Under the pieces are notes generated by a model. The model was not told where the DNA came from and made no database searches. It saw only the letters and a program-made list of their open reading frames with translations. A stretch of DNA of 64,000 nt, taken from the NCBI RefSeq assembly GCF_037975245.1, contig NC_092566.1, positions 9,652,001 through 9,716,000 of the forward strand, written 5' to 3'. Below, piece by piece: positions 27,210 through 62,197 of this stretch (its first letter is position 1; every line of letters starts with the position of its first letter). The stretch is from Apostichopus japonicus. Taxonomy: Eukaryota > Echinodermata > Holothuroidea > Aspidochirotida > Stichopodidae. The position numbers were made by a program, and so were the translations under genes.

Positions 27210-28406
27210 TTAAAGCTTTTCGGCCGATTGATAGATAATATTATCTTGCATCTCGGTTTCTGCTGGTGTGACGTTTTTCTCTACGCCAGCTGATTTTGAA
27301 GAAGCATTTCTAGATTTGAAGATTTTGTACAATGCGAAGGTCACCACAATAGCGATAATCAAACTCAGGACGATTATCACTACGATGTACGGTATTGATG
27401 CAGATACAGTTGTCCTACTCTGTTCTGGTATGGTCATGTTGTCTGTGGTTGATGTGCTTTGGTGAAAATTGTCCGTAACGGGCGGGGAGTCGTCGGTGAC
27501 CAGATGCGCGATCGCTACCGCGATTTGCGTATCGTATGTTAAACAGATCACTTCTTGGATATCATTCCCACCTGGAATGTCTTCCGTGATACTGATCGAT
27601 GTAAATCCTATCGATTGATCAATACTTATGGTTGTATTGACTAAAATTGATTGGTTTTGGTTACCTGCATCGAGGATGTTCCCATTCGTTGAATATACCG
27701 CCCAGTACATCAAACGAGGCGGATAACTCGAACAATTAAACTGCAGTAGGGGTGTAGAACTCGTGAAATTCTTGGGCAATATTTCAATTTCTAACGGTTT
27801 CACGATTATTTCAGTTGCACATGTCTCGACCCACGTATTGTTCTCATATTTTCCACACAAAATATTCCTATTTGTTTGACTTATTATAAAGGATGCTCTA
27901 GTCATATTAATTCTATTCCAGGATATATTATTACCAAAACAAATAAAATTCAACCTCTCTTGTAAGATTACAGTTGTTCCGACTGTAGACTTGCATGCTA
28001 TAACAGACGCCTGTCGTATTTGAAATGTTCTCTTCATAGTATAAGTATAAGCTATACCATGTGCAGTTTGCTGTGAAATATTAACGCTGCAAGTATAATT
28101 TCCTTCACAGCTCTCTACGGTACAGTTTCGGTGTAACCTCGCTGTGATTATGCCCATAATCCTCGTTTCTACTTGGGGGTTTTCGCCTTTTCGTTCTAGC
28201 ACCACACTTGTGTCGTCTCCATACGCTATGTTTCTACAGGAGATATTAAGTGTCTCCGTAAAATTTACAGCTCCAGTCAGAATTGTATACTCCAAGATTC
28301 CAGTTTCAAACACATCGGTTTCGCCGTCAATTCTAACAATGATAAGCGGTATAAAGAATGCATGGGAAACATGGATTAGTAACGAGATGAACAGTAATGA
28401 CGCCAT
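27210..28406 (-). CDS. Intronless Ig-like type I membrane receptor, 398 aa (paralogue 2)
   Basis: One open frame. The signal peptide is residues 1-16 (MASLLFISLLIHVSHA). The ectodomain is 17-337, with ten cysteines: 57, 95, 100, 106, 138, 156, 184, 196, 225 and 288. C57 with GNYTC106 fits a first Ig-like domain; LQFNC225SSYPPRLMYW with VIC288LTYDTQIA fits a membrane-proximal one; the middle (138-196) is a third cysteine-rich unit. There are at least ten N-glycosylation sites. The membrane segment is about 338-360. The 38-residue tail keeps IIYQSAEKL, but the ITIM-like tyrosine of paralogue 1 is replaced by Asp (EMQDNIIYQSA). It is clearly homologous to the 436-aa gene over the whole length (shared YPPRxMYW, NILD, DQSIGxTSI, TYDTQIA) and nearly identical to the gene at 61007. 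The family is not recognised; a surface receptor role is inferred from topology. Confidence 0.88.
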   Translation of the reverse strand: MASLLFISLLIHVSHAFFIPLIIVRIDGETDVFETGILEYTILTGAVNFTETLNISCRNIAYGDDTSVVLERKGENPQVETRIMGIITARLHRNCTVESCEGNYTCSVNISQQTAHGIAYTYTMKRTFQIRQASVIACKSTVGTTVILQERLNFICFGNNISWNRINMTRASFIISQTNRNILCGKYENNTWVETCATEIIVKPLEIEILPKNFTSSTPLLQFNCSSYPPRLMYWAVYSTNGNILDAGNQNQSILVNTTISIDQSIGFTSISITEDIPGGNDIQEVICLTYDTQIAVAIAHLVTDDSPPVTDNFHQSTSTTDNMTIPEQSRTTVSASIPYIVVIIVLSLIIAIVVTFALYKIFKSRNASSKSAGVEKNVTPAETEMQDNIIYQSAEKL

Positions 28407-30114
28407 TATGAGTATAGAAACGTATGTTTTACGAACTCACAGTTTGTATGTCGTTTAACAACGCGTACGTGGACCTGAATTAAGGTTTCTGTGAACTTCG
28501 TTAAATACATTATTTTGTAGTTGTTTTTACTGCTTCCTTATTTGATCAATATATAGTATTCGACTGCAAACGGAGCCATTATTGCTTTCATGCATGAGGG
28601 ACTTTTGGTTGCTCCATTATTGTATTTGTGCATATATAGTTATTTAATCATCATATGGTGTAGCGGACGCCATATTCTTTACGACGCAGCACTTATGTGG
28701 TCTGTTAGTCCCGTAGATTAGCTTTCACTGGGTAAACAGTATAAACCCGTCGCAGGATAGCTGAGGCGTTGGTCCTTATAGCACCTTTAAGTTTCCGTAA
28801 CATGACCAACGTAACCTTTTAGCTACAAGACACAGAAATTTATACATAGAGGCCATATCGTATGGAACCACTGATTTGTACAGATCAGTGTATGGAACGC
28901 CATGAGGACCACAAGTGGCGTTGCTACCCCAAACAGGAAGTGATACTACCCTAAACAAGTGGTGCTACTACTCATTAGTGACGGTGCTGCTGTAAAAAGG
29001 TGGCACTACCAGCATTAATTCATCAGAACCGTATATTCTAAATATACGACTCTGAAATACGTCGAAATGACATCAGTGTATAACAACCACAGAATTTAAA
29101 TGCATAGAAGTCATATCTTAACTGCTGACAACAATACGCTTTACAGCTACTTGAAGGCCGCTCGCGCCATCTTGGTACATCCAAAACAATGACTCGCGCA
29201 AAGGGTGCCTACGTTATAGGTAACGGGGTTTCGACGAAATCGTGATCTTATCTTCAAAATATCTTTCATTAAGTTCACATATAGAAACACTTGATGCACA
29301 AGATTAGTTCGAATTTTGTGGAAAAAAGATAAACTAGTTGAAATGAATTACAACTCTCGGGTATTTAGCCACTGCTTACAAATTGTTCTCATTTTTTGAT
29401 AAAAAAATCCTAGCATGTTCGCAAATGTATACATCTTACGTTTGGCCCTTAACTAGATACATAGGGCACAAACCCAACTGCTGTCGATATCGTTCACATT
29501 GCTATTTTTGATTAAACCGAAATGATGGGAAGATGGCTTTACAGAAATGTTTTGAGCTCCTGGGAAGCGAGAACTCCGAGTTGGAGGGACTCGGGCACCG
29601 ACAATTTACCGATAATTATCTGAGGGGCACTAAACTCTTGTGCTGTTGCTTGTTCACGTCATGGTGGGACAAATTTAGGCAGCGGGGTGGGAGAACAATA
29701 GTCTGAAAGTGGAAGGGCATGCCCCCTGGGTCCAGCCTGCATGGCTACCTGACTGCTGAGGGCGGGGGGGGGGGGGTGGAGTCATATAGCCACTAGACGA
29801 AAGCTCAGTCAATGATAAAACTGATATACACTGCAAGTCGACTTGATCGTGTTGGGGTAAAACTTTTTTTAACTTAAAGGTACGTCACAGTAATGTAACA
29901 ACCAAGATGTCATATTTTTGTGTATTAGTTGATGTTGCAAGTGCTTGGAAAATAGGTCAACACGGAAAACAATTTTGGATAGAACTTCCCAAAATGTATT
30001 TCTCTGTATACTTTCTATTTTCAATAGAAGTATCAGATGGTCCAATTGGAAACTGGTTAAGTATATATATATACTCGCAAAATGAAAGTCAATATGGAAG
30101 AAGAAATAGATAAC
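28407..30114. other. Duplicated 5' flank of the receptor gene, no gene recognised
   Basis: Matches 62198-63871. It presumably includes the promoter and 5' UTR of the 398-aa gene. A 68-codon open frame at 29907-30113 is present in both copies (63664-63870) but shows no domain and would be expected to persist simply because the blocks are so similar. A poly-G run lies near 29765. Confidence 0.45.
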
Positions 30115-30126
30115 TTCGGGACCTGC

Positions 30127-30290
30127 TGTTATGTGACGTCAGAACTTGCGTTGAACTTTCAGTTGACTCTGAACTTGAGGAAACGTTTCTTGATCTGGAA
30201 ACTTTGTATAGTTTGAAGATGACCAATATCGCGATATTCAAAGTGAAAGACAGTAAGACCGCAATATACGGTATCTCACCCTGGACCAGC
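30127..30290 (-). pseudogene. Receptor fragment: membrane segment and tail only
   Basis: The minus-strand frame gives GEIPYIAVLLSFTLNIAILV followed by IFKLYKVSRSRNVSSSSEST. This aligns with the membrane segment and start of the tail of the receptors at 27210 and 61007 (IPYIVVIIVLSLIIAI, LYKIFKSRNASSKSAG). No ectodomain lies upstream; the frame turns into unrelated sequence before residue GEIPYI. It begins about 13 bases beyond the sharp end of segmental duplication A, so it is a remnant of a fourth family member cut at or near the breakpoint. Confidence 0.65.
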
Positions 30291-30393
30291 ATGGATTCTA
30301 TCTTCAACTTTTGAAGTCGTCGTCGGTATCCACTACTTATGTGCAATGCTTCCGCCAGCAGTGTTTGTGTATATTGTGTGTGAAACAACAATT

Positions 30394-30640
30394 CGTGATT
30401 TCATATCAAATTTATATGACTAAAACTTCGTCGAATGCCACTCTTTTTTTCGAGAGAAGCGTTCACTAGGTTCTGGGAATCCGTAATAAGTAGCCTGACA
30501 GAAATTTGAGAACTTTCATTACTTTCATATTTGGCCAAAATTTGGCAATTTTGTGAGGCTATACTCTTATGATTTTGTTCGATTCTGGCCAAATGGCCGA
30601 CTTTCTGAATTCTTCCCAAAATTGTACCTGCAGTGTGTGG
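30394..30640 (+). repeat. Dispersed repeat R1, copy 1
   Basis: CGTGATTTCATATCAAATTT, AATGCCACT, AGAGAAGCGTT, TCTGACAGAAATTTGAGA, CTTTCAT and TTTTGGCCAAAATTT occur in order and match 57403-57629. Copy 1 lies just after duplication A, copy 2 just before duplication B. Confidence 0.7.
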
Positions 30641-30903
30641 CGTCCTTCTGATTCCTTTCCAGGCGATCAGAGTAGAATAAAGACTCATATTACGGTGAAA
30701 AATTAAATTTAAACACCAAGAGGCTAGGAAACATTTAGGGTTTCTAGGAACTATTTAAACCTGACTTTTATCCAAGAAAAAAAAAACTTTCTGTTCAACA
30801 TTGATAAATTTACCAGAAATGATATTGCTTTTAATGACGTTTGCATCCGGGTATAAAAATATGGTATATATAAGGGAAAAATCTACGCTATGACTGTCAT
30901 TGT

Positions 30904-31996
30904 TGTTACGTTGGAATGCGAGAGGTCTCGATAACTAATTTTTAACGAGACACAAGCCTGAGTTCGTTTCCGTAAGGAACAGACAAATTGACGAGTCTAG
31001 AGATTTTAAATGAGAACGTAAACTATATTGAACAATGGATTTCGAACCAACAACAACAAGTGGTAATTACAAATATATAGAAAATTACTCACAAACTTAA
31101 CAAGATAGGATACACTTTAAAACACGCTGGTCTCTTCCAACGGCGATATCCCACAGCGGCCACGACCTCGATGACGACGATTCTCGGTCCGTTGTACCGC
31201 GAAATTCACTGGTCCTCGACGAAGTTTCTCGCGATCCCAGAAACAGCAGTCACCTTCTTTCCGGCGATGCTCCAAAATAGAAGACGGACTTCCAGCCACA
31301 ATAGAGTGAAGCACAAGTCGAACTTCTCGCCGACTAAATATTACCAGAGTCAGTCCAAAATCAGCTTTATAGCCACTAACTCCTGGCGTAACGAACTTCC
31401 TCAACGGAGACAGAAATTCTTCACCTTCTCCGCAATAACGACTGAAAACTGTAGTATCACAGTAAAGTCCTCTTCAAACTTCTGAATGGAAGTGTAGAAT
31501 CAATCTTGATATTGATATCTCAATCCTTCAGAAAATACTGGTAGTTGAGCACTGACGATATATATAGTAGAATGGTATAATATGTGTCGTCGCTTGTATT
31601 CGTACAGAAACTGAGAAACTCTCCGATCTGGGCGGGTTTTTATACGATTCGCCATATCAAGAATCATCTAGATCTTTCTCGATACACTTGACCCAGTTTT
31701 TCTATTCTTGGAAATCCTTTGCATATCTGCGAACGTTCCAGAGAATCCACATCCACGAAGATGCCGTGCACAGCTTACACGCGATTCCACGTAAACCGAC
31801 GTTAACCCGAGACCAGCGCGTCATCATAAGGAATATACCAGAACAATCGTGTATTATAACATTGTGACACGGTAACCCGACCTAATTTCTCAAATACTGA
31901 TTTATCACGTAGGCAATTTCAATTACTCTCCACATTATAACATTAGGTTTCTCACTAGCAGTGACTAGCGTTAGGCTACAATGGGCCCTCGTAACA
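30904..31996 (-). mobile_element. Solo LTR (~1.09 kb) of an LTR retrotransposon
   Basis: The ends are TGTTACG and CGTAACA (the canonical TG...CA pair), flanked by the 4-bp direct repeat TTGT (30900-30903, 31997-32000). On the minus strand GTATAAAAACCCGCC near 31640-31655 resembles a core promoter with TATA box, so transcription would run leftward. No gag, protease or RT lies on either side, so this is a recombination-derived solo LTR. The open frame inside it (31117-31404) is part of the LTR and not a gene. The GC content is higher than the surroundings. Superfamily unassigned; the 4-bp flank is short enough to allow chance. Confidence 0.6.
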
Positions 31997-32249
31997 TTGT
32001 CTTTAAACCTTAAAATGTGAGTTAAAAAGGCAAATGCATTGTAATCATACTGCAGATACATAAATTTGAGACAAAAAATAACACAATGAGAAAATTATTC
32101 TTTGTTTGTACCAACTTATGTATTTCATGTTATATTTTATCTACATGACCATAAACTGAAATTTAGTACGTTAATTTCTTACATGAATTAAAAGGAAGAA
32201 AAATACCTCTTGTCCCTGTACAAAAGTGAATCAGTGAAACAAATACACC

Positions 32250-33545
32250 CCACAACTGCAAGGGAGTGTCATTTAGCACCAAGAAGAAACACCATTAATG
32301 GCTTACAATACAGTTCTAAGGGGCGTACCAATACGCCCCGCTACTGGTTGGAGTGTCATTTAGCACCAAGAAGTAACAACATTTAGTGGCTTGCAATACA
32401 GTTCTGAGGGGCGTACCAATACGCCCCACTACTGGTTGGAGTGTCATTTAGCAACAAGGAGTTACAAAATTTAGTGGCTTGCAATACAGTTCTAAGGGGC
32501 GTACCAATACGCCCCGCTACTGGTTGGAGTGTCATTTAGCACAAAGAAGTAACACCATTAAGGGGCGTACCAATACGCCCCGCTTCTGGTTGGAGTGTCA
32601 TTTAGCACAAAGAAGTAACAAAATTTAGTGGCTTGCAATACAGTTCTAAGGGGCGTACCAATACGCCCCGCTAATGGTTGGAGTGTCATTTAGTTCCAAG
32701 AAGTACCAACATTTAGTGGCTTACAATACAGTTCTAAGGGGCGTACCAAAACGCCCCGCTACTGATTGGAGTGTCATTTAGCACCAAGAAGTAACAACAT
32801 TTAGTGGCTTACAATACAGTTCTGAGGGGCGTATCAATACGCCCCACTATTGGTTGGAGTGTCATTTAGCAACAAGAAGTTACAAAATTTAGTGGCTTGC
32901 AATACAGTTCTAAGGGGCGTACCAATACGCCCCGCTACTGGTTGGAGTGTCATTTAGCACAAAGAAGTAACACCATTAAGGGGCGTACCAATACGCCCCG
33001 CTTCTGGTTGGAGTGTCATTTAGCACCAAGAAGTAACAAAATTAAGTGGCTTGCAATATACAGTTCTAAGGGGCGTACCAATACGCCCCGCTAATGGTTG
33101 GAGTGTCATTTAGTTCCAAGAAGTACCAACATTTAGTGGCTTACAATACAGTTCTAAGGGGCGTACCAATACGCCCCGCTACTGATTGGAGTGTCATTTA
33201 GCACCAAGAAGTAACAACATTTAGTGGCTTACAATACAGTTCTGAGGGGCGTACCAATACGCCCCGCTACTGGTTGGAGTGTCATTTAGCACCAAGAAGT
33301 GACAAAATTTAGTGGCTTGCAAAACAGTTCTGAGAGGTGTACCAAAACGCCCCGCTAATGGTTGGAGTGTCATTTAGCACCAAGAGGTTACACCATTAGT
33401 TCTGAAATAACATAATAACACCATTAGGTGGCTAAGAATGCAGTTCTGAAGTCCGTACCGATACACCCCCTACTGCTCGGAGTGTCATTTAGCAATAAGA
33501 AATTACATCATTAATAACAACAATAAGTGGCTTACAATGCAGTTC
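32250..33545. repeat. 88-bp satellite with GGGGCGTACC palindrome and 418-bp higher-order repeat
   Basis: At least 13 units. Each carries GGGGCGTACCAATACGCCCC (arms GGGGCGTA/TACGCCCC), GGTTGGAGTGTCATTTAGC, AAGAAGTAAC and TTTAGTGGCTTACAATACAG. Palindromes begin at 32320, 32408, 32496, 32562, 32650, 32738, 32826, 32914, 32980, 33070, 33158 and 33246, followed by decayed units. Spacing is 88 bases except for one 66-base unit at 32496-32562, and the same short unit recurs at 32914-32980. The array is therefore a two-copy higher-order repeat of 418-420 bp (four long units plus one short). Open frames inside are satellite artefacts. Confidence 0.92.
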
Positions 33546-33814
33546 TGAAGGATGTACTATTCAGACCCTCAGATTGCTCTAATGGGCATACTGATACCCC
33601 TACTAATAATTTTATACCAAAAAAGTACAATAATAAGAGAAGTCACTGTAACCTTACCCAACCCTCCCACCCCCCCTTTTTATTTCACACACACTTAAAA
33701 CAAGCATTTTAGGATTTGCAGAGTAGAAGACCATGTGGCTGTTCCAGTGTTGCCACTTCCTAAAGATGAACACATATACCCTACAAGACAATTAACCTCC
33801 GTGTTGTCCCCAAA

Positions 33815-33827
33815 TGACCTTTGACCT
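33815..33827 (-). promoter_or_regulatory. Perfect DR1-type nuclear receptor motif
   Basis: TGACCTTTGACCT on the plus strand is AGGTCAAAGGTCA on the minus strand: two AGGTCA half-sites with a one-base spacer. It is followed by TCACCAAACTCAATACGCTTCTT, so it is a stray unit of the array at 18700-19835. Binding by an RXR/HNF4-type factor is possible; no nearby gene is evident. Confidence 0.35.
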
Positions 33828-33839
33828 TCACCAAACTCA

Positions 33840-34990
33840 ATACGCTTCTTTTAATCAGTGCTATACACATTTTTTTCATCCTCTGTGATCTAGGATCATC
33901 CCTAGCAACAATAGGCACAGTAAGTTCTGTGCCATCATCCCATCAAAGTTTCCTTGCAATGGTTTTCCTCTTGAACGCAATGGCCAGACCAAACAGACTC
34001 AGTGTGAGCATTTCTGTGTCATCTTCAGAAGAAAAGAGAGAAATAAAACTTTATTCTACACTGACAGTCTAACCATTTTATTTATTTTTTATCTGTTGCA
34101 TTGATAGTAAAAAAACAAATGAACAAAGACTGCAAATGTGTTTTTTTTATATGATAAGTTAGCAGGACTATACTGTCATATGATTGCAGTGCTATCACTC
34201 TGCTGTCCTCTACAATCTGATTAATACTATGACAGAGGTCACATGTCTGCCTGTATTAGTAGCCTACATGTTGTTCCCATTATACAAGTGAAGATTCCAT
34301 TTGAATGTAATGTGTCCCCTTGGAGTAATATTGAATTAAAACATTGAATTTAATTTGATGTGACATTTGACCTATGTTTCTGGGGGGTCTGCTAGACATA
34401 GACTTTAACCCTAAAACACCTTCATACCAAGTTTTAAGAAAATCAACACAGCCATTTAAGAGGACTGTTTGACATAAAATTGGACACCCCACACAGACAA
34501 CTTTTACCCCTCCCTCAGTCAAACACTTCCGGTGACCATGCAATACCCCACAATGAATGACCCCTATTGGGAAAACTAACCACTACCATGGCAACTGTTG
34601 CGTAATACTGTTAATGGTCCAACTGGCAAAGGAACTACAATATTGTACCTAATCCTCCCTATCAGAGTGATTAGATAACAATTATTTGAAAATTCACATA
34701 CTGTAAGAGAGCGATTCTGTGTGCACAACACAAAGTTATGTGTTATGTGTAGACAAGGACTTTCCATACACACTTTCAATGTCTTAATGCATAGGTCATT
34801 GCAACCTGAATATACAATATGGAGGAATGAGATGAATAACTGCTCGGCAGAAATTCTTCTATAACAAGAGCCCAAGGGCACTGTGGTTCCTTGCTTGGGG
34901 TATATGACAATACACATAATATTATCAAGCAAGATTGGGCTCAAATAGTCCAAGTAATTGTGGTCCTACATGTTCCCATAAAGTAACCAA
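33840..34990. other. Intergenic, nothing recognised
   Basis: No supported gene. The open frame on the minus strand at 34576-34953 has no recognisable domain and begins in repeat-like sequence. Confidence 0.4.
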
Positions 34991-34999
34991 CACTATAGA

Positions 35000-35740
35000 C
35001 AACACTTTTGTGATCACAAAATGTGATCAGATTTTTGATCAAAAGACACTTTTGAGATCTAAATATGGCGTCGGAAATGTAAGAAATATAAGAGACCTAC
35101 AAGCGTGTCAACAGATATGATAACATTTGTGACCTCAGATGACATGACCTTTAAGTTTTAAAATGTTCCACCACCCCATTCACAACTTGTCCCAAAATAT
35201 CAACCATTTCACACCTTGGCATTGAGATTTAATTGCATTAAATGTCAAAAAATTAACTTTGAACTTGTATACATAACTTCACACACAAAGGTCACCCGGA
35301 GGTCAACCAATTGACATTTTTGATCGGTGAGACCTAAATAGAGCATGACTGTAAAAATTCAAACATTTTTTCTTTGCCCATTTTCTCCCCCCCCCCCAAA
35401 ATACTACTTTTTTAACATTAGCTGACCTTTGGTGACGTTGGATCACATGACCATTAAGTTTGAAAATATTCCCCTATACCATTTGCAACTTGTCCAAAAA
35501 AATCAACCTTGTAACACCTTGGCACTGGGAGTTATTGCATTAAATGTCTGAAAATTAACTTTGACCTCATATAACTTCGCACACGAAGGTCACACGGGGG
35601 TCAACCCATTGACATTTATGATCAGAAGGTACCTTTAACATCTGAAAATAGCATCGAAACTGTAAAATTCCACAAAACACGAAAAGGTCACCAGAGGTCA
35701 AATTGAGGTCAGGGGTCACCCAGATGCGGGTCGACAAATG
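35000..35740. repeat. ~300-bp tandem repeat, about 2.5 copies
   Basis: Units share TTTTGATC, ATGACCTTTAAG/ATGACCATTAAG, CCATTCACAACTTGTCC/CCATTTGCAACTTGTCC, CACCTTGGCA, TTGCATTAAATGTC, AATTAACTTTGA, CACACAAAGGTCAC/CACACGAAGGTCAC and GGTCAACC in order, at roughly 300-base spacing. The sequence is rich in AGGTCA/TGACCT half-sites (for example near 35683-35720) and carries a poly-C run near 35390. Confidence 0.65.
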
Positions 35741-35829
35741 GATTACATTGAAGCAACTCCCAACCCTAACAGACAATTTGTTTTCAAACAAGGATTTTGG
35801 AGTAGCCGACAACAGGAACGAAATTAGGA

Positions 35830-37374: not shown

Positions 37375-37672
37375 CAAGGGCGTAGGAACCGGGGGGCTGG
37401 GGGGCGCCAGCCCCCCCAGTGAAAAATATGGGGGGGGGGGCGGAAGTATCATTCCGCCCCCCCCCCCCCCCCCGCTCCGCAAGTCAGAAAACCCCTTTTT
37501 CATTTCCAAATGAGAAAAAAATCTCATTTGGAGCACCAAATTGCATTTAAGGCCAGGTGAAAATGCAAAATTCTTTACAAAATGGAGTGGGAATTGAAGT
37601 GTGCTATATTGCACCAAATTGCATCTGAGGCCACCTGGAAATGCAAAAAAAATCCAAAGGGGAGGGGGACAT
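37375..37672 (+). mobile_element. Truncated hAT-like miniature element
   Basis: Begins CAAGGGCGTAGGAACCGGGG and runs parallel to 40169-40480: AGTGAAAAATATGG, CGGAAGTATCATTCCGCC, AAGTCAGAAAACCCC, ATGAGAAAAAAATCTCAT, GCACCAAATTGCAT. It stops resembling that copy at GAGGGGGACA. Long C and G runs at 37430-37475 make the local base count uncertain. Confidence 0.6.
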
Positions 37673-37674
37673 CC

Positions 37675-39242: not shown

Positions 39243-40168
39243 CAGTGGCGTAGCCAGACTTTTTCATCTGGGGGGGGGGGCAAAGGGAGGGGGCGAAGGG
39301 TCTGATTGGTGGGGCAGACTAAGCTAGTACAAAAGACATACCAAACAGTTTGCATGACAAACTGTGGCGAATCGGGTATTGTGTCAGCAATGTAGGGCAC
39401 AGATGGTCACTCTAGTTAGCTGACGTTTTATGTTATTTCCACATAGGTATTATTAACGATAAAACAGATCACTGAAAAAGTCATCGATAGTACTCTTTAA
39501 AAATCTGAATAGACTATGCTCTTTCTGTCAGTATTCAAAGATGATCAGCATGATATCTGACTGGCCTGGGAGTGTAACCACCCCCCCCTCCCCAATCAAC
39601 AAAAGATGTTATCATTCCCCCTTCGGGCCCTTCTTTTGCACTGTCTAGGGCTCACTCAAACAGTTTAGCGAAGGTTAATTCGCCTATTCTGATGACTGTC
39701 TGCGACGAATTCGTCCAAATTGATCCCCTCGGACAGTTCCCTTTCGATATGTAAAACTCCGAGATCACTAAGGCGAGTGTCTGACATTGTGTTCCGCAGA
39801 TAGGTTTTGACGAGCTTCAATGTTGAGAAGCTGCGCTCGCATCCAGCACTCAATACCGGAATCGCAATGGCAATTTTACAAAGGCGTAACAGCTCTGCAA
39901 AGACATCATGATTATATGGCTCCAGAAACGATGTCAGCGACAGAAGGTTGGGTGGTGGCGTCTCTCCCGTGTTAGCGAACTAGCGCTGGAGGAGTCTCTG
40001 TGCTTGCGGAACCTCGTGTTTGAGGTCTTCCATGCTCGCATCGAAAACTTGGCCAAACTGTTCGACGCTTTCCATCCAGAGGTAATCCTTATATACTCTC
40101 TGGATTCAGTGATTGGATCCCTCTCATGATCTGGCAGTTTTCTGTGGAGAAGCGCTTGTTCATTTCCG
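39243..40168 (-). pseudogene. hAT transposase remnant (C-terminal dimerisation domain)
   Basis: The minus-strand frame 39665-39853 gives SAGCERSFSTLKLVKTYLRN, the hallmark of the hAT C-terminal dimerisation region (ZMYM1-like family), preceded in the same frame by YNHDVFAELLRLCKIAIAIP. Further upstream, across a frameshift and an in-frame stop, come NKRFSTENCQIMRGIQ and GKRRTVWPSFRC. The catalytic core is missing. An element end CAGTGGCGTAGCCAGAC lies at 39243, the expected position beyond the transposase stop. The other end is lost: the coding sequence stops abruptly at 40168, where another element begins. Confidence 0.75.
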
Positions 40169-41557: not shown

Positions 41558-41606
<49 letters not shown>

Positions 41607-46550: not shown

Positions 46551-46558
46551 CTGACCTA

Positions 46559-48209: not shown

Positions 48210-48217
48210 CTGACCTA

Positions 48218-49500: not shown

Positions 49501-49504
49501 CTGA

Positions 49505-52500: not shown

Positions 52501-55500
52501 ACCAATAAACTGCATTTCCAGGGTCATATGCCGAACGATGTCTGTGAACAGCACCCTCAAACATCACATTTTACAAATATTTTGGGCTATTTTGGGCATT
52601 TCAAGGTCAAATTTGGTCACAATTAAAAGTTTTATTTTTGGTTTTCAATACAAACTAGTAAGATATGTATAGTTATGATGCAAAGAATGTGCTAAAACAT
52701 ATTTTATATAAGTTATTAATGCTCTGGAGGGCAGCTTAAAGTGGCATATATGAGAGTTATATCAGCCCTACAGAAACATGCTTGCGAGGGCAAACAGTGG
52801 TAACATTATATCTTCATTCAAGGAGATCATGCTAACAACATTAAAAACTATTGAAATGTATTAAAAGGGTTCTGTCTAATACTCTTTGGCTCCCACCCCC
52901 CCCCCCTAACACCCTCCCCATAGTGCACTATGCATATTTGTATACATGCATACAGTATGTGACTGACTTCTACTGCAAAGAGACTGCATAAACATGCATT
53001 CAAGGTATACTGAATTATTGGTATGGTCCACAGTGTGCACTATATATGTGTGTACATGTTCAGTACAGTGTTATTTTACACCAAGTACTATTAAATACAC
53101 ACTGTCCAAAATAATGAACAGTATACACACTGTACATGTATTTACTGGTTAAACATTCCTTTTAAATTATTGAAAGTCTTTTAATTTATTGAATTAGCAA
53201 AAGAATTATACACTACATTGCAAATATTTAAAAAGACATTGAAATATGCACTATGCACTATACTGTATATGTGTGTACATGTTCAGTACAGTGTTGTTCT
53301 ACACCAATTACTATTAAATAAACACTGTCCAAAAACATGTACAGTACACACTGCACATTTATGTACTGGTTAAACATTCCTTTTAAATTATTGAAAGTCT
53401 TTTAATTATTGAATTAGCAAAAGCATACACTAAATTGCAAATATTTAAAATGATATTGAAATATGCACAGTATTGAATGGAATGACCAGTACACAGTGTG
53501 TACTGTACATGATTGTGGACAGTGTGTATTTATTTAGTGCTTGGTGTAAAAATAACACTGTACTGAACATTTACACACATATATAGTGCACACTGTATGT
53601 ATGCACTGGTTCACATTCATATTCTAATCTGATATAGGGTTGGGTAGAGGATGTGGGTGGGAGGGGGTGAGTTACATGCATACAGACAATTTGAAGCAGA
53701 AGATTACCTTACCAAATAATTCAGTATACCTTGAATGCATGTTTATGCAGTCTCTTTGCAGTATTAAAATTCAGTCACATATGCATACAAATCTGCATAG
53801 TGCACTATGGGGAGGGTGCTGGGGGGGGGGGTGAGAGGGAGTCAAAGAGTACTAGACAGAACCCTTTTAATAAATAACATTTCAATAGTTTCTAATGTTG
53901 TTTTACATGGTCTCCTTGAATGAAGATACAATGTTACCACTGTTTGCCCTCGCAAGCATGTTTCTGTAGGGCTGATGTAACTCTCATGAGCCACTTTAAG
54001 TTGGTTGCTAGGCGGGGTCGTAACCTAGCAACGAAAAAGTTTCAAATTTTTTTTTTGCCCAATTTCATCCTTTGAGACATATGGCAGGACACCATATCAG
54101 TTCCAGGCGATTCTAAGAGGGTCGACGTGGAATCGACCCAAAAATCTGTTGATTTGGCATGGATTGACCCATATATCATTTACATTATTTCTCAAATGAT
54201 ATTGGATCAAAACTCAAATCAATATTTCTTATCTGATATCGTAAACCCTGTATCAGTTAAGAGTTTATTTTGTATCATAATATGTTCTATTTTTACTAGG
54301 TCAAAAGGAGAGCAGTAACATCTTGCCCGCACTAAGGCGTGCCAGGTTTCTTTGGAACTGAATACCCTTATAGTCGATGGAATGGACCAATCAAAGACTG
54401 ATCTGCCAAATTTGTCCAGAGTGAAAAGGATGTAAAACATCCACATCCACATAACAGGTCAGTACTGTATTATCATGGAGGTCTGTTTTACCTCCATGGT
54501 ATTGTGAAGTGACCTAAGAGTGCACAAGACGGAAAGTGTTTATGTCATTATAAGTGTAAACATCACGTTTTCTGGTTTCCGAGAAATTGTAATCCTACAG
54601 TATGAAATTGTAATGTCATGTTGGTGTATAGTACAGTATGTATGTGCGTGAGCAGTATGTGTGTGTGGGTGTTTATACAGGGTGTTTGTTTGTATGATGC
54701 CTTGTTTTACAACACAATGTCTCAAGAGGGGAAGCTTGATTATCTTCATAAATAGTATAAGGATGGACACCTAAGGTTACAAGAAGTCTAGTGTTCCTAT
54801 TGTTTTGGTTGAGGTCAAATCAATTCTGTTCTTTATTTTGTTGTTCTGATAAAGATTATGGCCTTAGTATCCATCAAATATTATGTGACTGTTTTGTTTT
54901 GTTTGTTAAAGCACATAGTAGGTTAATTATCAAACTTTATTTAATAGCAGAAAACAAGTAATAACAACCTCTTTATCATACATGTCAATGAAGTAGTATA
55001 TATTCATTCTTCTCTTTCTTTTCAGGTGTCCTAATTCACACTAAAGGTCCATGTGACAAGTTTGCATATATGTTATGACTGATCTGAAGCATATCCAACA
55101 TGATTCAAACATGACCATTACATGCAATTTGTGGACACTAGTGAAGCACAAGGATACTCTTGGGAAGGATCTGTTTTTGCAAATGGATAATTGTTACAGG
55201 GAGAATAAGAACCGCTATCTTCTGTCCTTCTGCCCTTCTGCCCTTCTGCTCCTTGCTTTTAGAGTTGAAGATCTTCAGAGTGGTGATATATATAAATGTT
55301 ATAACTTTGCTAAAGAAGTTATTGAAGTATCTGACTATATTCAAGTTGGGAATATAGCAGCCGTAAACCTCATTGATTCAAGCACACGACCATACTTTGG
55401 AGAAGTCACTAAAATTTAAAAGGATGAGGTTATTTTACATTGGATGAAGGGATCCTGGACTGGAGACTGGAAACTGCTAGACTGTGGCCAAGGAAGAAAT

Positions 55501-55647
55501 AAGCAGCCATACACACCATCAGTTTCTTTCCATTCCTTAATGTTCTGGGACTTTAATTTAACCCATAAAAATCGCCTTCCAAAGAGGGAAGTCTGTGACT
55601 TGAAAGAAAGATATGCAGCTATAGATAAAGAATTTGAGCTGAATAAC
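49505..55647 (+). pseudogene. Decayed multi-exon DUF7869-type (transposon-associated) gene
   Basis: Pieces in order on the plus strand, in shifting frames: RSEKKRRRNQAFDPLPMF and CCDGSCIKSLSYDDLEQSF (49852-50040); CGKIVCEKAFCMFFGISSKL (50090-50155); HGNKGKKRMRTKTPFALAW and IGDYMPHKTEVHLPVSYTKT (50200-50340); KNEECRQLQEVHLNHL (51690-51737); LNTLIVDGMDQSKTDLPN (54360-54413); DLKHIQHDSNMTITCNLW and DLFLQMDNCYRENKNRYLL (55081-55230); LLLELKIFRVV in another frame; LDCGQGRNKQPYTPSVS (55473-55530). The motif LxLQMDNCxRENKNRYLL is the signature of the DUF7869 family, widespread in mobile-element-like genes and with a likely RNase H-like fold. Breaks: TAA after CLK near 50170, TAA inside the DGMDQ exon near 54430, TGA near 55068, and a frameshift in a CCTTCTGCC triplication (55228-55252). 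Some gaps may be introns. Not functional. Confidence 0.7.
52735..54000. repeat. Large inverted repeat inside the DUF7869-type pseudogene
   Basis: The left arm 52735-53107 starts CTTAAAGTGG; the right arm 53517-54000 ends CCACTTTAAG. Shared landmarks in inverted order include CAAACAGTGGTAACATT, GGTTCTGTCTA, the C/G runs at 52895 and 53822, CATAGTGCACTATG, AGAGACTGCATAAACATGCATTC and ACACTGTAC...AACATG. The loop (53108-53516) holds a ~220-bp tandem doubling (ACATTCCTTTTAAATTATTG at 53151 and 53366). The right arm is about 110 bases longer. No coding capacity; probably a foldback or palindromic transposon. Confidence 0.75.
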
Positions 55648-55739
55648 TAGGAAACCTTATGTTTTACACATACTATTGATTGGGCAGTGTGTACTCTTAT
55701 TTTCTTGCAACAAACTTGTGTAAAAGAAGATATGTAGTT

Positions 55740-56770
55740 TTGAGAAACACACACAATTTTGTTGGTGTATTGCTACACTTAACTGGTTGGGGCGTACTGG
55801 TACGCCCCAAAGATATATACAATTTATCATAGGGGTGTATTTCTACTCTAAACTGGTTAGGGCGTACTGGTACGCCCCAAAGATATATACAATTTATCAT
55901 AGTGGTATATTTCAACACTTAACTGGTTGGGGCGTACTGGTACGCCCCAAAGATATATACAATTTATCATAGTGGTCTATTGCTACACTTAACTGGTTGG
56001 GGCGTACTGGTACGCCCCAAAGATACATACAATTTATCATAGGGGTGTATTTCTACTCTAAACTGGTTGGGGCGTACTGGTATGCCCCAAAGATATATAC
56101 AATTTATCATAGTGGTATATTTCAACAAAAGATATATACAATTTATCATAGTGGTCTATTGCTACACTTAACTGGTTGGGGCGTACTGGTACGCCCCAAA
56201 GATATATACAATTTATCATAGTGGTCTATTGCTACACTTAACTGGTTGGGGCGTACTGGTACGCCCCAAAGATATATACAATTAATCATAGTGGTGTATT
56301 GCTACACTTAACTGGTTGGGGCGTACTGGTACGCCCCAAAGATATATACAATTTATCATAGTGGTATATTGCTACACTTAACTGGTTGGGGCGTACTGGT
56401 ACGCCCCAAAGATATGTATATAATTAATCATAGTGGTGTATTGCTACACTTAACTGGTTGGGGCATACTGGTACGCCCCAAAGATATATACAATTTATCA
56501 TAGTGGTCTATTGCTACCCTTAACTGGTTGGGGCGTACTGGTACGCCCCAAAGATAAATACAATTTATCATAGAGGTGCATTTCTACACTTAACTGGTTG
56601 GGGCGTACTGGTACGCCCCAAAGATATATACAATTTATCATAGTGGTGTATTGCTACACTTAACTGGTTGGGGCGTATTGGTACGCCCCAAAGATAGAAC
56701 TTATTACAAGTAGAGGTGTATTGCTACACTTAACTGGTTGGGGTGTATTGGAACGCCCCAAAGATACAAA
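55740..56770. repeat. 70-bp satellite with GGGGCGTACTGGTACGCCCC palindrome
   Basis: About 14 units. The core palindrome has 9-base arms GGGGCGTAC/GTACGCCCC and a TG centre, followed by AAAGATATATACAATTTATC, ATAGTGGT, and ATTGCTACACTTAACTGGTT. Cores occur every 70 bases from 55789, with one truncated unit at about 56126. Open frames along the array are artefacts of a period not divisible by three. The array starts about 90 bases after the end of the DUF7869-type remnant. Confidence 0.93.
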
Positions 56771-56774
56771 AAAA

Positions 56775-57402
56775 AAATTGTACAATATATCCATTTGCCC
56801 CAAAATGACTATTTATCAAAAAATACTTGTATTTTATGTTCGCTTTGGGAAAATCATACCAAAAATAATCATATATTAAATTTTTGCTATGTTTTGTCAA
56901 CTTGATTGATAAAAATCTTTGCTTTTGTTAGTAAGTGATGGTTTATTCAAAATTCAGTGAATGTTATGGCTAAATTGCTTAATTTGTTAGTATCTGTAAC
57001 AGCAAACTCTTTTAAGACATCTAATCCACCAGAATAGAGATAAAATGTTTATGTCTGCTCGTTTTACTATGAATTAACAAGGTAACACTGTTGTGTTAAA
57101 TTATTCCATGTAAATGGCTATGTATCCTGCATTTCTGAATAAATGTATATTTACAGAATTTTACAAATAAGAAATGTTACATGCAAATAAATGAGAAAAT
57201 ACGCAACATATTTCAAATGTCATATTTTTCATGTACTAATACAATGCAAAAACCAGGCCTTGGTTAACAGACCACATTTCAACGTAAAAGGGTTGAATTC
57301 ACTCGTACATCTTTCATTTTTCAGCTTTTACTTGGAGAAAAAGTGAAAAGTCATATTTCCTTAATTACCCAAATGTTTCCTAGTCTCTTCACCATATCTT
57401 GA
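56775..57402. other. Intergenic, nothing recognised
   Basis: AT-rich; no gene. The word CCCAAATGTTTCCTAGTCTC (57368 onward) occurs in inverted form near 30712, next to R1 copy 1. Confidence 0.45.
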
Positions 57403-57629
57403 CGTGATTTCATATCAAATTTAAATGACTAAAACTCCTTCAAATGCCACTTTTGTCTCAAGAGAAGCGTTTTCTGGGTTCTGAAAATCCGTTATAAGTA
57501 TTCTGACAGAAATTTGAGATCTTTCATAACTTTCATTTTTGGCCAAAATTTATCAATTTTGTAATACTATACTCTTGTGAGTTTGTTCTACTTTGGCCAA
57601 AATCACGACTTTTGGATTTCTTCTCGAAA
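57403..57629 (+). repeat. Dispersed repeat R1, copy 2, at the edge of duplication B
   Basis: Matches 30394-30640 in order and orientation, then gives way directly to the interior of an R2 repeat (GGCTTGGGCTATCAT) at about 57635-57640, which is the left boundary of segmental duplication B. The junction R1/R2 is therefore the rearrangement point. Confidence 0.7.
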
Positions 57630-57639
57630 ATGGCTTCCT

Positions 57640-57910
57640 GGCTTGGGCTATCATAAAACATTCCACTTTTGCCACCATGACCGTGTAGATATTGAGCTAG
57701 AAGAGCTCAAAGTTTATCATGATGCTCTCAACCTATCTGCCAGCTGTCGTTGCGGAATTTTTTGTTTCACCCAAGATTTTCTATAATACCTTAAATCACA
57801 CTCAATCCTCCGGATTTTTAGACCATCAGTAGTTTATTTCATCTTCTTCAATATTCAAGCATCAAAAAGAATGGCGATGACTCAGAAAATGCCACAAAAA
57901 AATAATTAAA
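57640..57910 (+). repeat. Dispersed repeat R2, copy 5 (left part missing)
   Basis: Starts at GGCTTGGGCTATCATAAAAC; the first ~50 bases of R2 are absent because the duplication boundary cuts it here. Ends GATGACTCAGAAAATGCC. Confidence 0.6.
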
Positions 57911-58402
57911 CACAGTAGGTCACTTTAGAGGTTTTTTTTTTCGATAATGGTTAACATCTCAGGCGGGCGTGCACTACTCTGATTGTGGTGCGATACCTGT
58001 ACCTCGTCAGGATGGTGAGATTATTTCCGACACATACCTTAGCAAAATGATTCTCTTGACAGTTCAAGATCAAATACATAATGAGACAAATACATGTCAT
58101 CTTTCAGTTGTATATATTGAAATTGCCCGACTATAAATCCACGAGGGTGAGCGAGTACAAGTGCAAGTGAACAGGAAATTATATTTGAATACGAGGAACA
58201 TTATGCACTCACTACAAGACATGGTATGGTAACTGAATGAATTACAATTTTCGTGATGAGAAACACATATTCCGCTCCAGATGCATATTGCATTCAGATA
58301 TCATTTTCACCAAGTCACCAGGCCACATTGGTTTGATAAACATATATTGCAGCATTTATAACGGATACCACAGAGCGGTTATACTGTGCAGTTCATCTTA
58401 AC

Positions 58403-58995
58403 AAATGGACGGTGCTGTTCAAAGTCCTTGTAAAGATGTTGAGGCTGACGGTCACAGATGAACTCACGCTAGATCATACATCATTCTGTCGGCCGGGAAA
58501 TGCAAACAATACAAAAGGACGTGCTGTTCTAAGTCCTTGTAAAGATGCTTGAGGATGAAGTTCTCAAATGAATACACACAATATCATACATCATTTTGGT
58601 GGCCGGGAAATGCAAACAATACAAATGGACGTGCTGTTCTAAGTCCTTGTAAAGATGCTTGAGGATGAAGTTCTCAGATGAATACACACAATATCATACA
58701 TCTTTTTGGTGGCCGAGAAATGCAACCAATACAAATGGACGTGCTGCTCTAAGTCCTTGTAAAGATGCTTGAGGATGTAGTTCTCAGATGAATACACACA
58801 ATATCATAGTACATCATTTTGGTGGCCGGGAAATGCAACCAATACAAATGGACGTGCTGCTCTAAGTCCTTGTAAAGATGCTTGAGGATGTAGTTCTCAG
58901 ATGAATACACACAATATCATAGTACATCATTTTGGTGGCCGGGAAATGCAACCAATATAAATGGACGTGCTGTTTTAAGTCATTGTAAAGAAACT
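58403..58995 (+). repeat. ~112-bp tandem array, about 6 unit starts (copy B)
   Basis: GGACGTGCTG(T/C)TCTAAGTCC markers near 58406, 58517, 58625, 58735, 58850 and 58962. Internal units are closer to each other than to several units of copy A, suggesting local expansion. Confidence 0.75.
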
Positions 58996-59009
58996 TCCTT
59001 TCCCGTCAC

Positions 59010-59345
59010 ATCCAAGGCCGCTAGAGCATATAGATTGAAATTTTGAAGTGACGTGTCTTACCCACCATATGATAGCTGATGGCTTGGGCTATTACAGTAC
59101 ATTCAAGTTTTTGCCACCATGACCATGCAGATTTTGAGCTACAAGAGATCAAAGGTCAGCATGGCTTCCCAACCCATCTGCCAGCTCTCACTGCGGAATC
59201 TTCTTGATTCTCGCAGGATTTTTTGAAATGTTCTTAAATTATTCTTCAACCCTCTATATTTTTAGACCATCAATAGCTTATTTCATCCTCTTTCGACCTC
59301 CATGCATCAACAAGAATGATGATCAAAAGTGCCATAATAATCACT
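59010..59345 (+). repeat. Dispersed repeat R2, copy 6
   Basis: From TCCAAGGCCGCTAGAGCATA to AAGAATGATGATCAAAAGTGCC; counterpart of copy 4 in the proximal block. Confidence 0.6.
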
Positions 59346-59627
59346 ACAGTAGGTCACAATTTTCCTGTCAGGCGGACGTGTACTACTCTAAGTGTGGTTC
59401 CCCGCAGCTACTATGTAGTACTTACTATCTGTACCAACGCTACTAACGCTATAATTAAGACTCAGTATAGTTATATATGAAAAAAGGTGACTGGAAAAGC
59501 CACTCTTAAAAGGGTTAAACCCAAGTAGTGTACAAGGTAATTCGATGTCTGTTTCTTGATTACAAACAAAAAAAGATGTATGATAATTAAATGTTTTTAC
59601 TACTACATTGTTTTTCCTAATACATCC

Positions 59628-59697
59628 TTACCAACGCTACTACCAACGCTACTCACGCTACTTACGCTACTAACGTACCAACGCTACTAACGCTACA
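59628..59697 (+). repeat. ACGCTACTA minisatellite (copy B)
   Basis: Degenerate (C)CAACGCTACTA units; counterpart of 25840-25912, with slightly more regular units. Confidence 0.6.
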
Positions 59698-61006
59698 TAA
59701 TTAACACCCAGTATCTATGAAAAAAGGTGACTGGAAAAAGTCACTCTTAAAAGTGTTAAAATCATGTACTGTACAAGGTTATTCGATATCTGTTTCTTGA
59801 TCACAAAATAACAAAGATATATGATAATTATTTTTTTTTTACTAATACATTGAAAATGATACAAGATGAACCTATACGTTATCAGCAGTTGATCTTTCGT
59901 GTCCAGATGTATCCAAGCATGAATGGCGAAATATGCTTACCGAATGGATCATACGTCTCTAAATGAAATGGTGAATTTATCAATACAGATTGAGCTATAA
60001 CGTTTGACGACATTAACTACAAATTCATATTGGTCAAGCCGATATAGCAGACAATACTTTGGTAAACCTGGTTACCGAACGTGCTGATGACGCAATGGAG
60101 GCCCAATTAGCCGTATAGTAGTGTCACGTTTAGAGGAAAAAATATTGGGTACATCAAAAGACAGAATATTCTCCAAATGGAAGAATTTTTCCTCTGGTGC
60201 AGATGTCCCTTACAATACCTCATGTATTTAAATGTTCTTGTTTTGGGATCCTCCGGAGACTATTTCTAGATTATCATACCGATTGGTTGACAACATTATC
60301 ATAAGCCGTGCCAAAATGTCCTCTCTGCACCTTGACTTTAAGTCTGCATAGCTATGTCTATGTGACTGGATATGCTTAATTATCTATGAGGCAATCAAAT
60401 AACTATAGTAAACTGATCATCACTTGTAAAGTAAAGTTCATGAAAGGAAATGTCACAAACAAGACAGACGACAAACGAAATGTGGTGAAAGAAGGATTGA
60501 AAGAGAAACAAAGAACGAGCTAATCATACCTACAAAATTACGAATATCACTATATCGAGTCGTTGTATTCGTTAAGCAAGAATAGGTCTAAAATATTAAT
60601 TACGTTACACATTTGATAAACAAGGAAAAATTGTCTAAATATTGAGAATCATTACAAAAAAAAGTTGCCGCAATGTACAACAGGACAGCACAGTGACAGT
60701 AAAAGTTTGATTATGTGTCATTATAGTAAGATATTAAAAGTTAATGCATATCAGAGAGAAATAAGATTATAAATGATCCTAGGTTCACCCCTCCATTAGT
60801 GGAACGGTTTCGTTATGTATCTGAGCGTCTACGAAGAAACAAAATGCCATTTTGTCATTTTATGACGTCATAAAAATACCCAGTAGTTTTGTACTGCTAA
60901 ACCTTTCCCTTACTCCAGCAAGTGGATCCCATGGAGGATGATCTGCGATGCCATCGTGGCACTGAGTTGCTCTTCAGAAGCTTTACTTAGACTGTTTTGT
61001 TTATAG

Positions 61007-62197
61007 CTATTCGGCCGATTGGTAGATAATATTATCTTGCATCTCGGTTTCTGCTGGTGTGAGGTTTTTCTCTACGCCAGCTGATTTTGAAGAAGCATTT
61101 CTAGATTTGAAGATCTTGTACAATTCGAAGGTTGCCCCAATAGCGATAATCAAACTCAGGACGATTATCACTACGATGTAGGGTATTGATGCAGGTACAG
61201 TTGTCCTACTCTGTTCTGGTATGGTCATGTTGTCTGTGGTTGATGTGCTTTGGTGAAAATTGTCCGTAACGGGCGGGGAGTCGTCGGTGACCAGATGCGC
61301 AATCGCTACCGCCATTTGCGTATCATATGTTAAACAGATCACTTCTTGGATATCATTCCCACCTGGAATGTCTTCCGTGATACTGATCGATGTAAATCCT
61401 ATCGATTGATCAATACTTATGGTTGTATTGACTAAAATTGATTGGTTTTGGTTACCTGCATCGAGGATGTTCCCATTCGTTGAATATACCGCCCAGTACA
61501 TCAAACGAGGCGGTAAACTCGAACAATTAAACTGCAGTAGGGGTGTAGAACTCGAGAAATGCTTGGGCAATATTTCAATTTCTAACGGTTTCACGATTAT
61601 TTCAGTTTCACATGTCTCGACCCACGTATTGTTCTCATATTTTCCACACGAAATATCAGTATTTGTTTGACTTATTAGAAAGAATGCTCTAGTCATATTC
61701 TTTCTATTCCAGGATATATTATTACCAAAACAAAGAAAATTCAACCTCTCTTGTAAGATTACAGTTGTTCCGACTCTAGACTTGCATGCTATAACAGACG
61801 CCTGTCGTATTTGAAATGTTCTCTTCATAGTATAAGTATAAGCTACACCATGTGCAGTTCGCTGTGAAATATTAACGCTGCAAGTATAATTTCCTTCACA
61901 GTTCTCTGCGGTACAGTTTCGGTCTAACCTCGCTGTGATTATGCCCATAATCCTCGTTTGTACTTGGGGGTTTTCGCCTTTTCGTTCTAGCACCACACTT
62001 GTGTCGTCTCCATATGCTATATTTCTACAGGAGATATTAAGTGTCTCCGTAAAATTTACAGCTCCAGTCAGAATTGTATACTCCAAGATTCCAGTTTCAA
62101 ACATATCGGTTTCGCCGTCAGTTCTAACAATGATCATCGGTATAAAGAATGCATGGGAAACATGGATTAGTAATGAGATGAACAGTAATGACGCCAT
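61007..62197 (-). CDS. Intronless Ig-like type I membrane receptor, 396 aa (paralogue 3)
   Basis: Same layout as the 398-aa paralogue: signal peptide 1-16, cysteines at the same ten positions, Ig-like C57...C106 and C225...C288, membrane segment about 338-360 and a short tail. By eye the two proteins differ at about 28 positions, with a cluster between residues 140 and 213 (for example I165K, S170F, R178T, L181S, A196E, N211H) and a few in the membrane segment (VV to GA, A to E). Only about eight silent nucleotide differences are visible. The tail ends IIYQSAE because AAG of the paralogue is TAG here, removing the final Lys-Leu. The Y of SSYPPR is Leu. The frame is intact over its whole length, so it is likely expressed, although the canonical AATAAA of copy A is CATAAA here. 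Confidence 0.88.
   Translation of the reverse strand: MASLLFISLLIHVSHAFFIPMIIVRTDGETDMFETGILEYTILTGAVNFTETLNISCRNIAYGDDTSVVLERKGENPQVQTRIMGIITARLDRNCTAENCEGNYTCSVNISQRTAHGVAYTYTMKRTFQIRQASVIACKSRVGTTVILQERLNFLCFGNNISWNRKNMTRAFFLISQTNTDISCGKYENNTWVETCETEIIVKPLEIEILPKHFSSSTPLLQFNCSSLPPRLMYWAVYSTNGNILDAGNQNQSILVNTTISIDQSIGFTSISITEDIPGGNDIQEVICLTYDTQMAVAIAHLVTDDSPPVTDNFHQSTSTTDNMTIPEQSRTTVPASIPYIVVIIVLSLIIAIGATFELYKIFKSRNASSKSAGVEKNLTPAETEMQDNIIYQSAE

What the first reader, a model, noticed from the sequence alone, without database searches (positions are those of the whole stretch)
27210..62197. Two duplicated receptor genes differ mostly by amino-acid-changing substitutions
Comparing 27210-28406 with 61007-62197 by eye, I count about 28 amino-acid replacements but only about eight silent changes, of which only three lie in the signal and ectodomain half. 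Replacements cluster at residues 140-213, while a long block around residues 225-290 is identical at DNA level. That pattern suggests diversifying selection on a ligand-facing region, or gene conversion homogenising the membrane-proximal domain. A family of intronless, highly glycosylated Ig-like receptors evolving this way may be an undescribed recognition system.
Basis: partly seen in the sequence, partly recalled or inferred. Interest (0 to 1): 0.72.

Follow-up and report, generated by a model that had tools for sequence, protein, structure and literature searches.

The report
Intronless three-Ig receptors, near-neutral duplicate pair
Two neighbouring copies of a sea-cucumber cell-surface receptor gene differ in about the proportion that near-neutral change would give, but they belong to a large clustered family of one-exon immunoglobulin-type receptors whose middle domain is shuffled between copies and changes fastest.

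Summary
The count is right: 28 codons differ in meaning (27 replacements plus one stop) and 8 are silent. The inference for this pair is not: replacement sites outnumber silent sites about 3:1, dN/dS is 0.91-1.03, and replacements are rarer than changes in flanking DNA (p=0.0095). The copies look like true ~6.4 kb paralogous units. The genome is an echinoderm, very probably Apostichopus japonicus. I merged matches into 26 loci of the window's family, 17 of them full single-ORF receptors; 26 further, related loci lie elsewhere, many fragmentary. D3 models as an Ig fold. In the C7/C10 subfamily mean dN/dS is 0.90, 1.00 and 0.65 for D1, D2, D3. Site models suggest selected D2 sites, but the signal fades as gappy columns go (p=4e-6, 0.003, 0.11). 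D1 and D2 trees reject each other (AU about 1e-6): paralogues are mosaics. D2 holds a length-variable, Tyr-rich Cys-Cys loop. Best reading: a germline recognition-receptor family diversified by duplication and domain exchange; ligand and function untested.

The parts
27210..28406 (-). Gene A: single-ORF receptor, 398 aa (signal-like start, three Ig-like domains, stalk, TM about residue 340, short tail with NIIYQSA)
61007..62197 (-). Gene B: paralogue of A, 396 aa, 93% identical; stop two codons earlier
20680..21990 (-). Gene C: third single-ORF paralogue, 436 aa, 45% identical to A; longer tail (NTVYQSA, NDYCMI)
28008..28358 (-). A domain D1 (residues 17-133); weak Pfam ig match (E 0.004, below cut-off)
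27798..28007 (-). A domain D2 (residues 134-203; 134-216), the most replaced domain between A and B and among the C7/C10 paralogues
27492..27797 (-). A domain D3 (residues 204-305), conserved membrane-proximal Ig fold
   Evidence: model pLDDT 72.4; fold matches
61589..61798 (-). B domain D2
   Evidence: same residues as A, no gaps
61283..61588 (-). B domain D3
   Evidence: same residues as A, no gaps
27535..27722 (-). 188-nt block identical in A and B (61326-61513 in B)
24000..30388 (.). Duplicated unit, A copy (approximate ends): gene A, flanks and a paralogue 3' fragment
57600..64000 (.). Duplicated unit, B copy (approximate start); homology runs on to about 64557, beyond the window
30200..30358 (-). 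Fragment (stalk, TM and start of tail) of a further paralogue, also copied beside B outside the window

Best explanation
A and B are a recent, most likely genuine duplicate pair (unit about 6.4 kb) of one gene in a large family of single-ORF, single-pass receptors with three Ig-like domains and a short tail that usually carries a Tyr motif (NxxY). Shown: the duplication, the single open frames, an Ig fold for D3 (by model), near-neutral dN/dS between A and B, and conflicting domain trees among the C7/C10 paralogues. Inferred: the receptors sit on coelomocytes or other cells, bind variable ligands (microbial or self/non-self) through D1-D2, hold D3 as a stem, and signal or are internalised through the tail Tyr. 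Repertoire change comes from segmental duplication, exchange of domains between paralogues, length change in a Tyr-rich D2 loop, and perhaps selection on a minority of D2 sites in one subfamily. The A/B replacement excess is what weak constraint on D1-D2 gives; diversifying selection is not needed for it.
For: A/B dN/dS 0.91-1.03: 30 replacement and 10 silent changes on 911 and 277 sites; replacement rate below the flank rate (243 of 4415), p=0.0095. Family: 26 loci merged by me, 17 of them full single-ORF receptors (frames; signal-like start and TM by crude hydropathy in 16 of these 17; L032 not scored). Tail NxxY in 15 of those 16. D3 model and Ig matches; the distant single-ORF relative L039 passes Pfam cut-offs for V-set, I-set and Ig_3. 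Over eight non-overlapping pairs replacement:silent is 147:39 in D2 and 69:40 in D3, p=0.004; 0.008 without A/B. D2 site model p=4e-6, 0.003 gap-free, 0 of 15 null simulations as extreme, 0.018 when cut in halves. D1 and D2 data reject each other's tree (AU 1.2e-6, 3.4e-7). Tyr-rich loop of 12-20 residues in eight paralogues.
Against: D2 alone is not above 1 on average: pooled pN/pS 1.29, p=0.13; M0 omega 1.00 (0.7-1.4), and D2 against D3 p=0.15. The strict D2 site test is p=0.11, the second half of D2 p=0.34; D1 also gives p=0.007, from two sites at the D1-D2 junction. Other groups lack it: D2 0.71-0.74 in L020/L021/L025; whole gene 0.43 in L022/L023; D2 class alpha 0.63 against beta 1.79; C11 relatives D2 p=0.81. 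Recombination and gaps inflate site models. D1 and D2 folds are not modelled (full-length mean pLDDT 31); four of the five D3 models were poor (32-42). No expression, ligand or cell type comes from any call.
Confidence: 0.62

Rival explanations
1. Diversifying selection acted on the D2 face of A and B themselves since they split.
For: Residues 134-216: 12.5 replacement against 0.5 silent changes; 10 of 27 replacements in 140-213, p=0.016 for the preset block.
Against: p=0.07-0.08 for that domain; whole-gene dN/dS 0.91-1.03; replacement rate in 140-213 not above the flank rate (p=0.39); scan-corrected clustering 0.09-0.19. The ratio rests on very few silent changes.
Confidence: 0.15
2. Gene conversion between A and B homogenised the D3 part.
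For: 188-nt identical run, p=0.013; divergence uneven along the unit, p=0.0002; domain trees conflict in the C7/C10 subfamily.
Against: The unevenness is also there in noncoding DNA alone (p=0.0004); D3 is the most constrained domain in the C7/C10 subfamily (0.65, interval 0.5-1.0), so constraint could give the block; silent divergence over the gene is not significantly below the flanks (p=0.11).
Confidence: 0.35
3. A and B are the two alleles of one locus, falsely placed twice in the assembly.
For: About 5% divergence could be allelic in a highly heterozygous marine animal (general knowledge).
Against: The copies lie 33.8 kb apart on one contig and homology stops at both ends of a ~6.4 kb unit. 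Among the 60 longest self-matches of the window and against 10 kb on either side, the DNA between the units matches outside only in short repeats. If this is the A. japonicus assembly it is HiFi plus Hi-C (PMC10344927, passages).
Confidence: 0.06
4. Ordinary adhesion or developmental IgSF genes under weak constraint, with no recognition role; the D2 signal is an artefact of recombination and loop misalignment.
For: Strict D2 test p=0.11; D2 and D3 omegas not separable (p=0.15); no D2 signal in the C11 relatives.
Against: Clustered expansion with broken copies, mosaicism and a length-variable loop are more typical of recognition families (general knowledge).
Confidence: 0.25

Closest known systems
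Hydractinia Alr (allorecognition complex) IgSF family
   Same: Clustered, expanded family of receptors with V-set and I-set Ig-like domains, 41 members (passages of PMC11999971); transmembrane with a tyrosine-bearing tail (recalled)
   Different: A cnidarian family; no sequence relation tested. Alr genes have several exons (recalled); these are single-ORF. No allorecognition genetics here.
SpTransformer (Sp185/333) of sea urchins
   Same: Echinoderm immune family in clusters with segmental duplications, mosaic sequence elements and pairwise dN/dS on both sides of 1 (passages of PMC8634487)
   Different: Two-exon genes; not an IgSF transmembrane architecture (recalled)
Vertebrate KIR, LILR, CEACAM and NITR receptors
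   Same: Works alike: type I Ig-domain receptors, clustered, fast-evolving outer domains (recalled)
   Different: Multi-exon, with canonical ITIM or ITAM partners (recalled); by eye no motif in the A, B or C tail fits the ITIM consensus
Amphioxus VCBPs
   Same: Germline-diverse Ig-type immune receptors in an invertebrate deuterostome (table entry in PMC13428168, passages)
   Different: Carry a chitin-binding module, not found here by Pfam in the 18 members scanned; these have a TM segment and a tail

Membership tests
Immunoglobulin superfamily | Ig-like beta-sandwich domain | tested here: met
Immunoglobulin superfamily | Pfam Ig profile above curated cut-off | tested here: inconclusive
   A: ig E 0.004, 17.9 bits against cut-off 21.8; 2 of 18 members match ig, 1 of 18 Ig_3 and 1 of 18 C2-set_2 at E up to 0.1; the distant single-ORF relative L039 passes for Ig_3, V-set and I-set
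ITIM-bearing inhibitory receptors | Cytoplasmic (I/V/L/S)xYxx(I/L/V) motif (consensus recalled) | tested here: not met
   By eye on the A, B and C tails printed: IIYQSA fails at +3, TVYQSA at -2 and +3, NDYCMI at -2. Other members were not checked one by one.
Hydractinia Alr family | Sequence homology to Alr1/Alr2 | not tested
   No Alr sequence was compared
Hydractinia Alr family | Allorecognition phenotype segregating with the locus | not testable with these tools
   Needs crosses
Positively selected immune receptor family | Subset of ectodomain sites with dN/dS above 1 | tested here: inconclusive
   Eight C7/C10 paralogues, D2: p=4e-6, 0.003 gap-free, 0.11 strict; 0 of 15 simulations; not seen in other groups

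The most novel reading that the evidence does not exclude
Sea cucumbers carry a germline recognition repertoire of some thirty intact one-exon, three-Ig receptors (about fifty loci with broken copies and fragments) in which the middle domain is a swappable module with a Tyr-rich, length-variable disulphide loop: a CDR-like binding surface diversified by domain exchange between paralogues rather than by somatic rearrangement. Being single-exon, the genes can trade domains by simple ectopic conversion.
Probability: 0.27. Interest if true: 0.72.

Novelty: new variant of a known kind. Interest (0 to 1): 0.42.

Why it matters
Clustered, fast-evolving Ig receptors are known in several animals, but a large one-exon set with mosaic domains and a Tyr-rich variable loop would give echinoderms an Ig-based repertoire beside their better-known immune families (Toll-like and NOD-like receptors, SpTransformer). 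It would also be a compact system in which to test how domain shuffling builds recognition without introns or somatic rearrangement. For the pair itself the lesson is methodological: raw replacement and silent counts must be divided by sites and set against neutral flanks.

Tried and rejected
Full-length structure with the three window proteins failed (mean pLDDT 31); the D3-only alignment worked in one of five models. A PDB sequence search found nothing for A alone and 14 weak sequences for the 18-member profile, 10 of them beta-2-microglobulin, best E 0.03. One scan of viral contigs found no relative. A retained-haplotype artefact was judged unlikely on the breakpoints. Canonical ITIM was rejected by eye for A, B and C. 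The mean-omega form of the selection claim was rejected for A/B and for the C7/C10 subfamily; the whole-gene site-model p of 4e-16 is not relied on because domain trees conflict. I considered that A and B might have lost, or splice to, a tail like C's; translation of the 400 bases past the stops shows nothing evidently like it (by eye), so that stays unproven. Paper searches (open-access library only) listed no paper that, by title and start of abstract, describes such a family in echinoderms; of PMC13228809, PMC13428168 and PMC11999971 I saw found passages only, likewise of PMC10344927 and PMC8634487.
Full report
What was checked. The window is G000:C6:9652001-9716000 of a 671,581,487-base genome in 35 contigs. 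Its mitochondrial contig gives the same open frames under tables 5 and 9, but the residues at conserved COX1 positions fit table 9, the echinoderm code (my reading). Frames that I recognise, by recall, as COX1, ND4L, COX2, ATP6, COX3, ND3, ND4, ND5 and CYTB, then ND1 and ND2, and the large rRNA (Rfam match), lie on one strand; by recall that is the echinoid and holothuroid order, not the asteroid one. Size and count are close to the Apostichopus japonicus assembly (671,643,915 bases in 34 scaffolds; PMC10344927, passages seen) plus a mitochondrion, though the totals are not equal. The species name is therefore an inference.

The pair. A (27210-28406, minus) and B (61007-62197, minus) are 93% identical proteins. 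Codon comparison gives 28 codons differing in meaning, including one stop, and 8 silent. With sites counted (Nei-Gojobori, my script; multiple-hit codons make 10 silent changes of the 8 codons) there are 30 replacement changes on 911 sites and 10 silent on 277: dN 0.034, dS 0.037, ratio 0.91; with the flank-derived transition bias, 1.03. Ectodomain 1.5-1.7, p 0.39-0.51. Residues 134-216 give 7-8, p 0.07-0.08, resting on half a silent change; residues 217-313 about 0.5 (p 0.6) and the rest about 0.4 (p 0.22-0.24). Flanking DNA of the same unit differs at 243 of 4415 sites (5.5%); the coding part is less diverged, 42 of 1194 (p 0.0047), and replacements are rarer than flank changes (p 0.0095). 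So the pair shows constraint overall, apparently weakest in D2, and no evidence for selection above neutral.

Duplication. The units are about 24.0-30.39 kb and 57.6-64.56 kb, the latter running past the window's end with unmatched DNA near 63.9-64.3 kb. Both carry a 3' fragment of another paralogue. A repeat lies beside the A unit (30394-30718), left of B (57390-57631) and right of B, which would suit duplication by recombination between repeats; this is inference. Beyond the unit I found no long match between the surroundings of A and of B (60 longest self-matches; 10 kb on either side), which argues against alleles assembled twice.

The family. Queries with A, L012 and L028 gave 25, 34 and 25 matching places. 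I merged them by hand into 26 loci of the window's family, leaving C11:25199801 and C13:6773182 apart. Seventeen are single open frames from a signal-like start through a TM segment: A, B, C, L011-L016, L020-L025, L028, L032 (L020's tail end differs). Six are broken by stops or frameshifts: L009, L010, L017, L018, L019, L026. One is a fragment. Two are doubtful: L027 has no clear start, and L033's frame ends in its TM segment. They cluster on C10 12.97-13.16 Mb and 14-16 Mb, C7 1.41-1.42 and 15.3 Mb and C6, with singles on C2 and C20. A C7 block (from 1,403,500, where my fetch began, to 1,424,156) recurs inverted on C10 at 95.7-98.8% identity and carries three family genes. The related gene L039 (C13) finds 40 places, which I merge into 26 further loci (20 on C11, 2 on C13, 4 on C6), many of them fragments, besides two of the window's family. 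I fetched 13 of the fuller ones; all 13 have a single open frame of 353-505 residues (L054 lacks a clear TM). No intron is needed to encode these proteins; UTR introns or short 3' coding exons cannot be excluded.

Selection in the family. I wrote a codon-model script (M0, M1a, M2a, F3x4; in site models branch lengths are fixed from M0 up to one scale factor) and used eight C7/C10 paralogues: L012-L016, L018, L024, L026. L018 and L026 are broken genes, used in their open parts; the broken L009, L010, L017 and L019 were left out of these models. M0 omega: D1 0.90 (0.7-1.2), D2 1.00 (0.7-1.4), D3 0.65 (0.5-1.0), remainder 0.77 (0.6-1.0); D2 against D3 p 0.15. On the first, family-wide alignment D2 was 1.16. 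M2a over M1a: whole gene p 4e-16 on one tree, unsafe under recombination; D2 on its own tree p 4e-6; 0.003 without gapped columns, 0.11 when columns within three of a gap are dropped; D1 0.007 from two sites at its junction with D2; D3 0.11; remainder 1.0. No simulated null of 15 reached the gap-free D2 value; D2 cut in halves p 0.008 and 0.34, combined 0.018. Pooled over eight non-overlapping pairs (some of them within one mosaic subfamily), D2 has 147:39 replacement to silent, pN/pS 1.29 (p 0.13 against 1), and D3 69:40; the contrast has p 0.004, or 0.008 without A/B. Against: D2 omega is 0.71-0.74 in L020/L021/L025 and 0.43 for the whole gene in L022/L023, 0.63 in D2 class alpha against 1.79 in beta (neither different from 1), and the C11 relatives show no D2 signal (D2 p 0.81, D1 p 0.02). 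So positive selection on some D2 sites in one subfamily is plausible but not firm.

Mosaicism. D1 data reject the D2 tree (AU 1.2e-6) and the D3 tree; D2 data reject the D1 tree (3.4e-7) and the D3 tree (8.6e-7); D3 data reject the D2 tree (0.007) but not the D1 tree (0.10). L016 and L026 differ by 3.4% in D1 and 18% in D2; L012 and L013 by 6.6% and 21.5%. In a triplet scan 14 of 168 tests had p below 0.0005 and 68 of 168 below 0.05, uncorrected and not independent. D2 occurs in two sequence classes (alpha: L012, L015, L016, L026; beta: L013, L014, L018, L024), combined with different D1 backgrounds. D2's Cys-Cys loop in these eight is 12-20 residues with 3-7 Tyr, against about 3% Tyr elsewhere, and has runs of TAT codons, which slippage could lengthen or shorten; that is inference.

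Tail. An NxxY motif occurs in the last 90 residues of 15 of 16 intact members scored (L020 lacks it; L032 was not scored), NPxY in L012-L016 and L021-L025, and YINI at the end of the C7/C10 subfamily. By recall NPxY binds PTB domains or endocytic adaptors and YxN fits Grb2-type SH2 domains. A and B keep only NIIYQSA.

Conclusion. The genes nevertheless open onto a family that deserves description: one-exon three-Ig receptors, clustered, partly broken, mosaic, with a variable middle domain.

Noticed in passing
39668-39979 (-): hAT transposase C-terminal dimerisation remnant (PF05699, E 3.7e-10)
   Followed up: no
55057-55416 (+): DUF7869 fragment (PF25273, E 5.7e-17), probably from a mobile element
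   Followed up: no
32263-33392 and 55763-56766: Two tandem arrays (units about 88 and 70 bp) whose units otherwise look unrelated but share a palindromic core GGGGCGTA-4-TACGCCCC
   Followed up: no
7096-7770 (+): Basic, low-complexity 224-aa open frame; three Pfam matches, all below cut-off
   Followed up: partly
L040-L045 (C7 1.403-1.424 Mb and C10 13.136-13.157 Mb): Inverted segmental duplication of at least 20 kb between two contigs, 95.7-98.8% identical, carrying three family genes
   Followed up: partly
L046-L054 (C11 7.3-7.5 and 10.5-11.05 Mb): Second large cluster of single-ORF Ig receptors, apparently duplicated within the contig
   Followed up: partly
L056 (C6:14975500-14979000): Single-ORF Ig-type receptor whose tail has TDYEIV, fitting the recalled ITSM consensus TxYxx(V/I)
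   Followed up: no
G000:C29:14745-31219: Five further COX1-like pieces with in-frame TGA on a contig other than the mitochondrial one: a rearranged mitochondrial copy or an assembly leftover
   Followed up: no
C10:15658049 and C10:16182760: Two family genes 99% identical as proteins, about half a megabase apart
   Followed up: no
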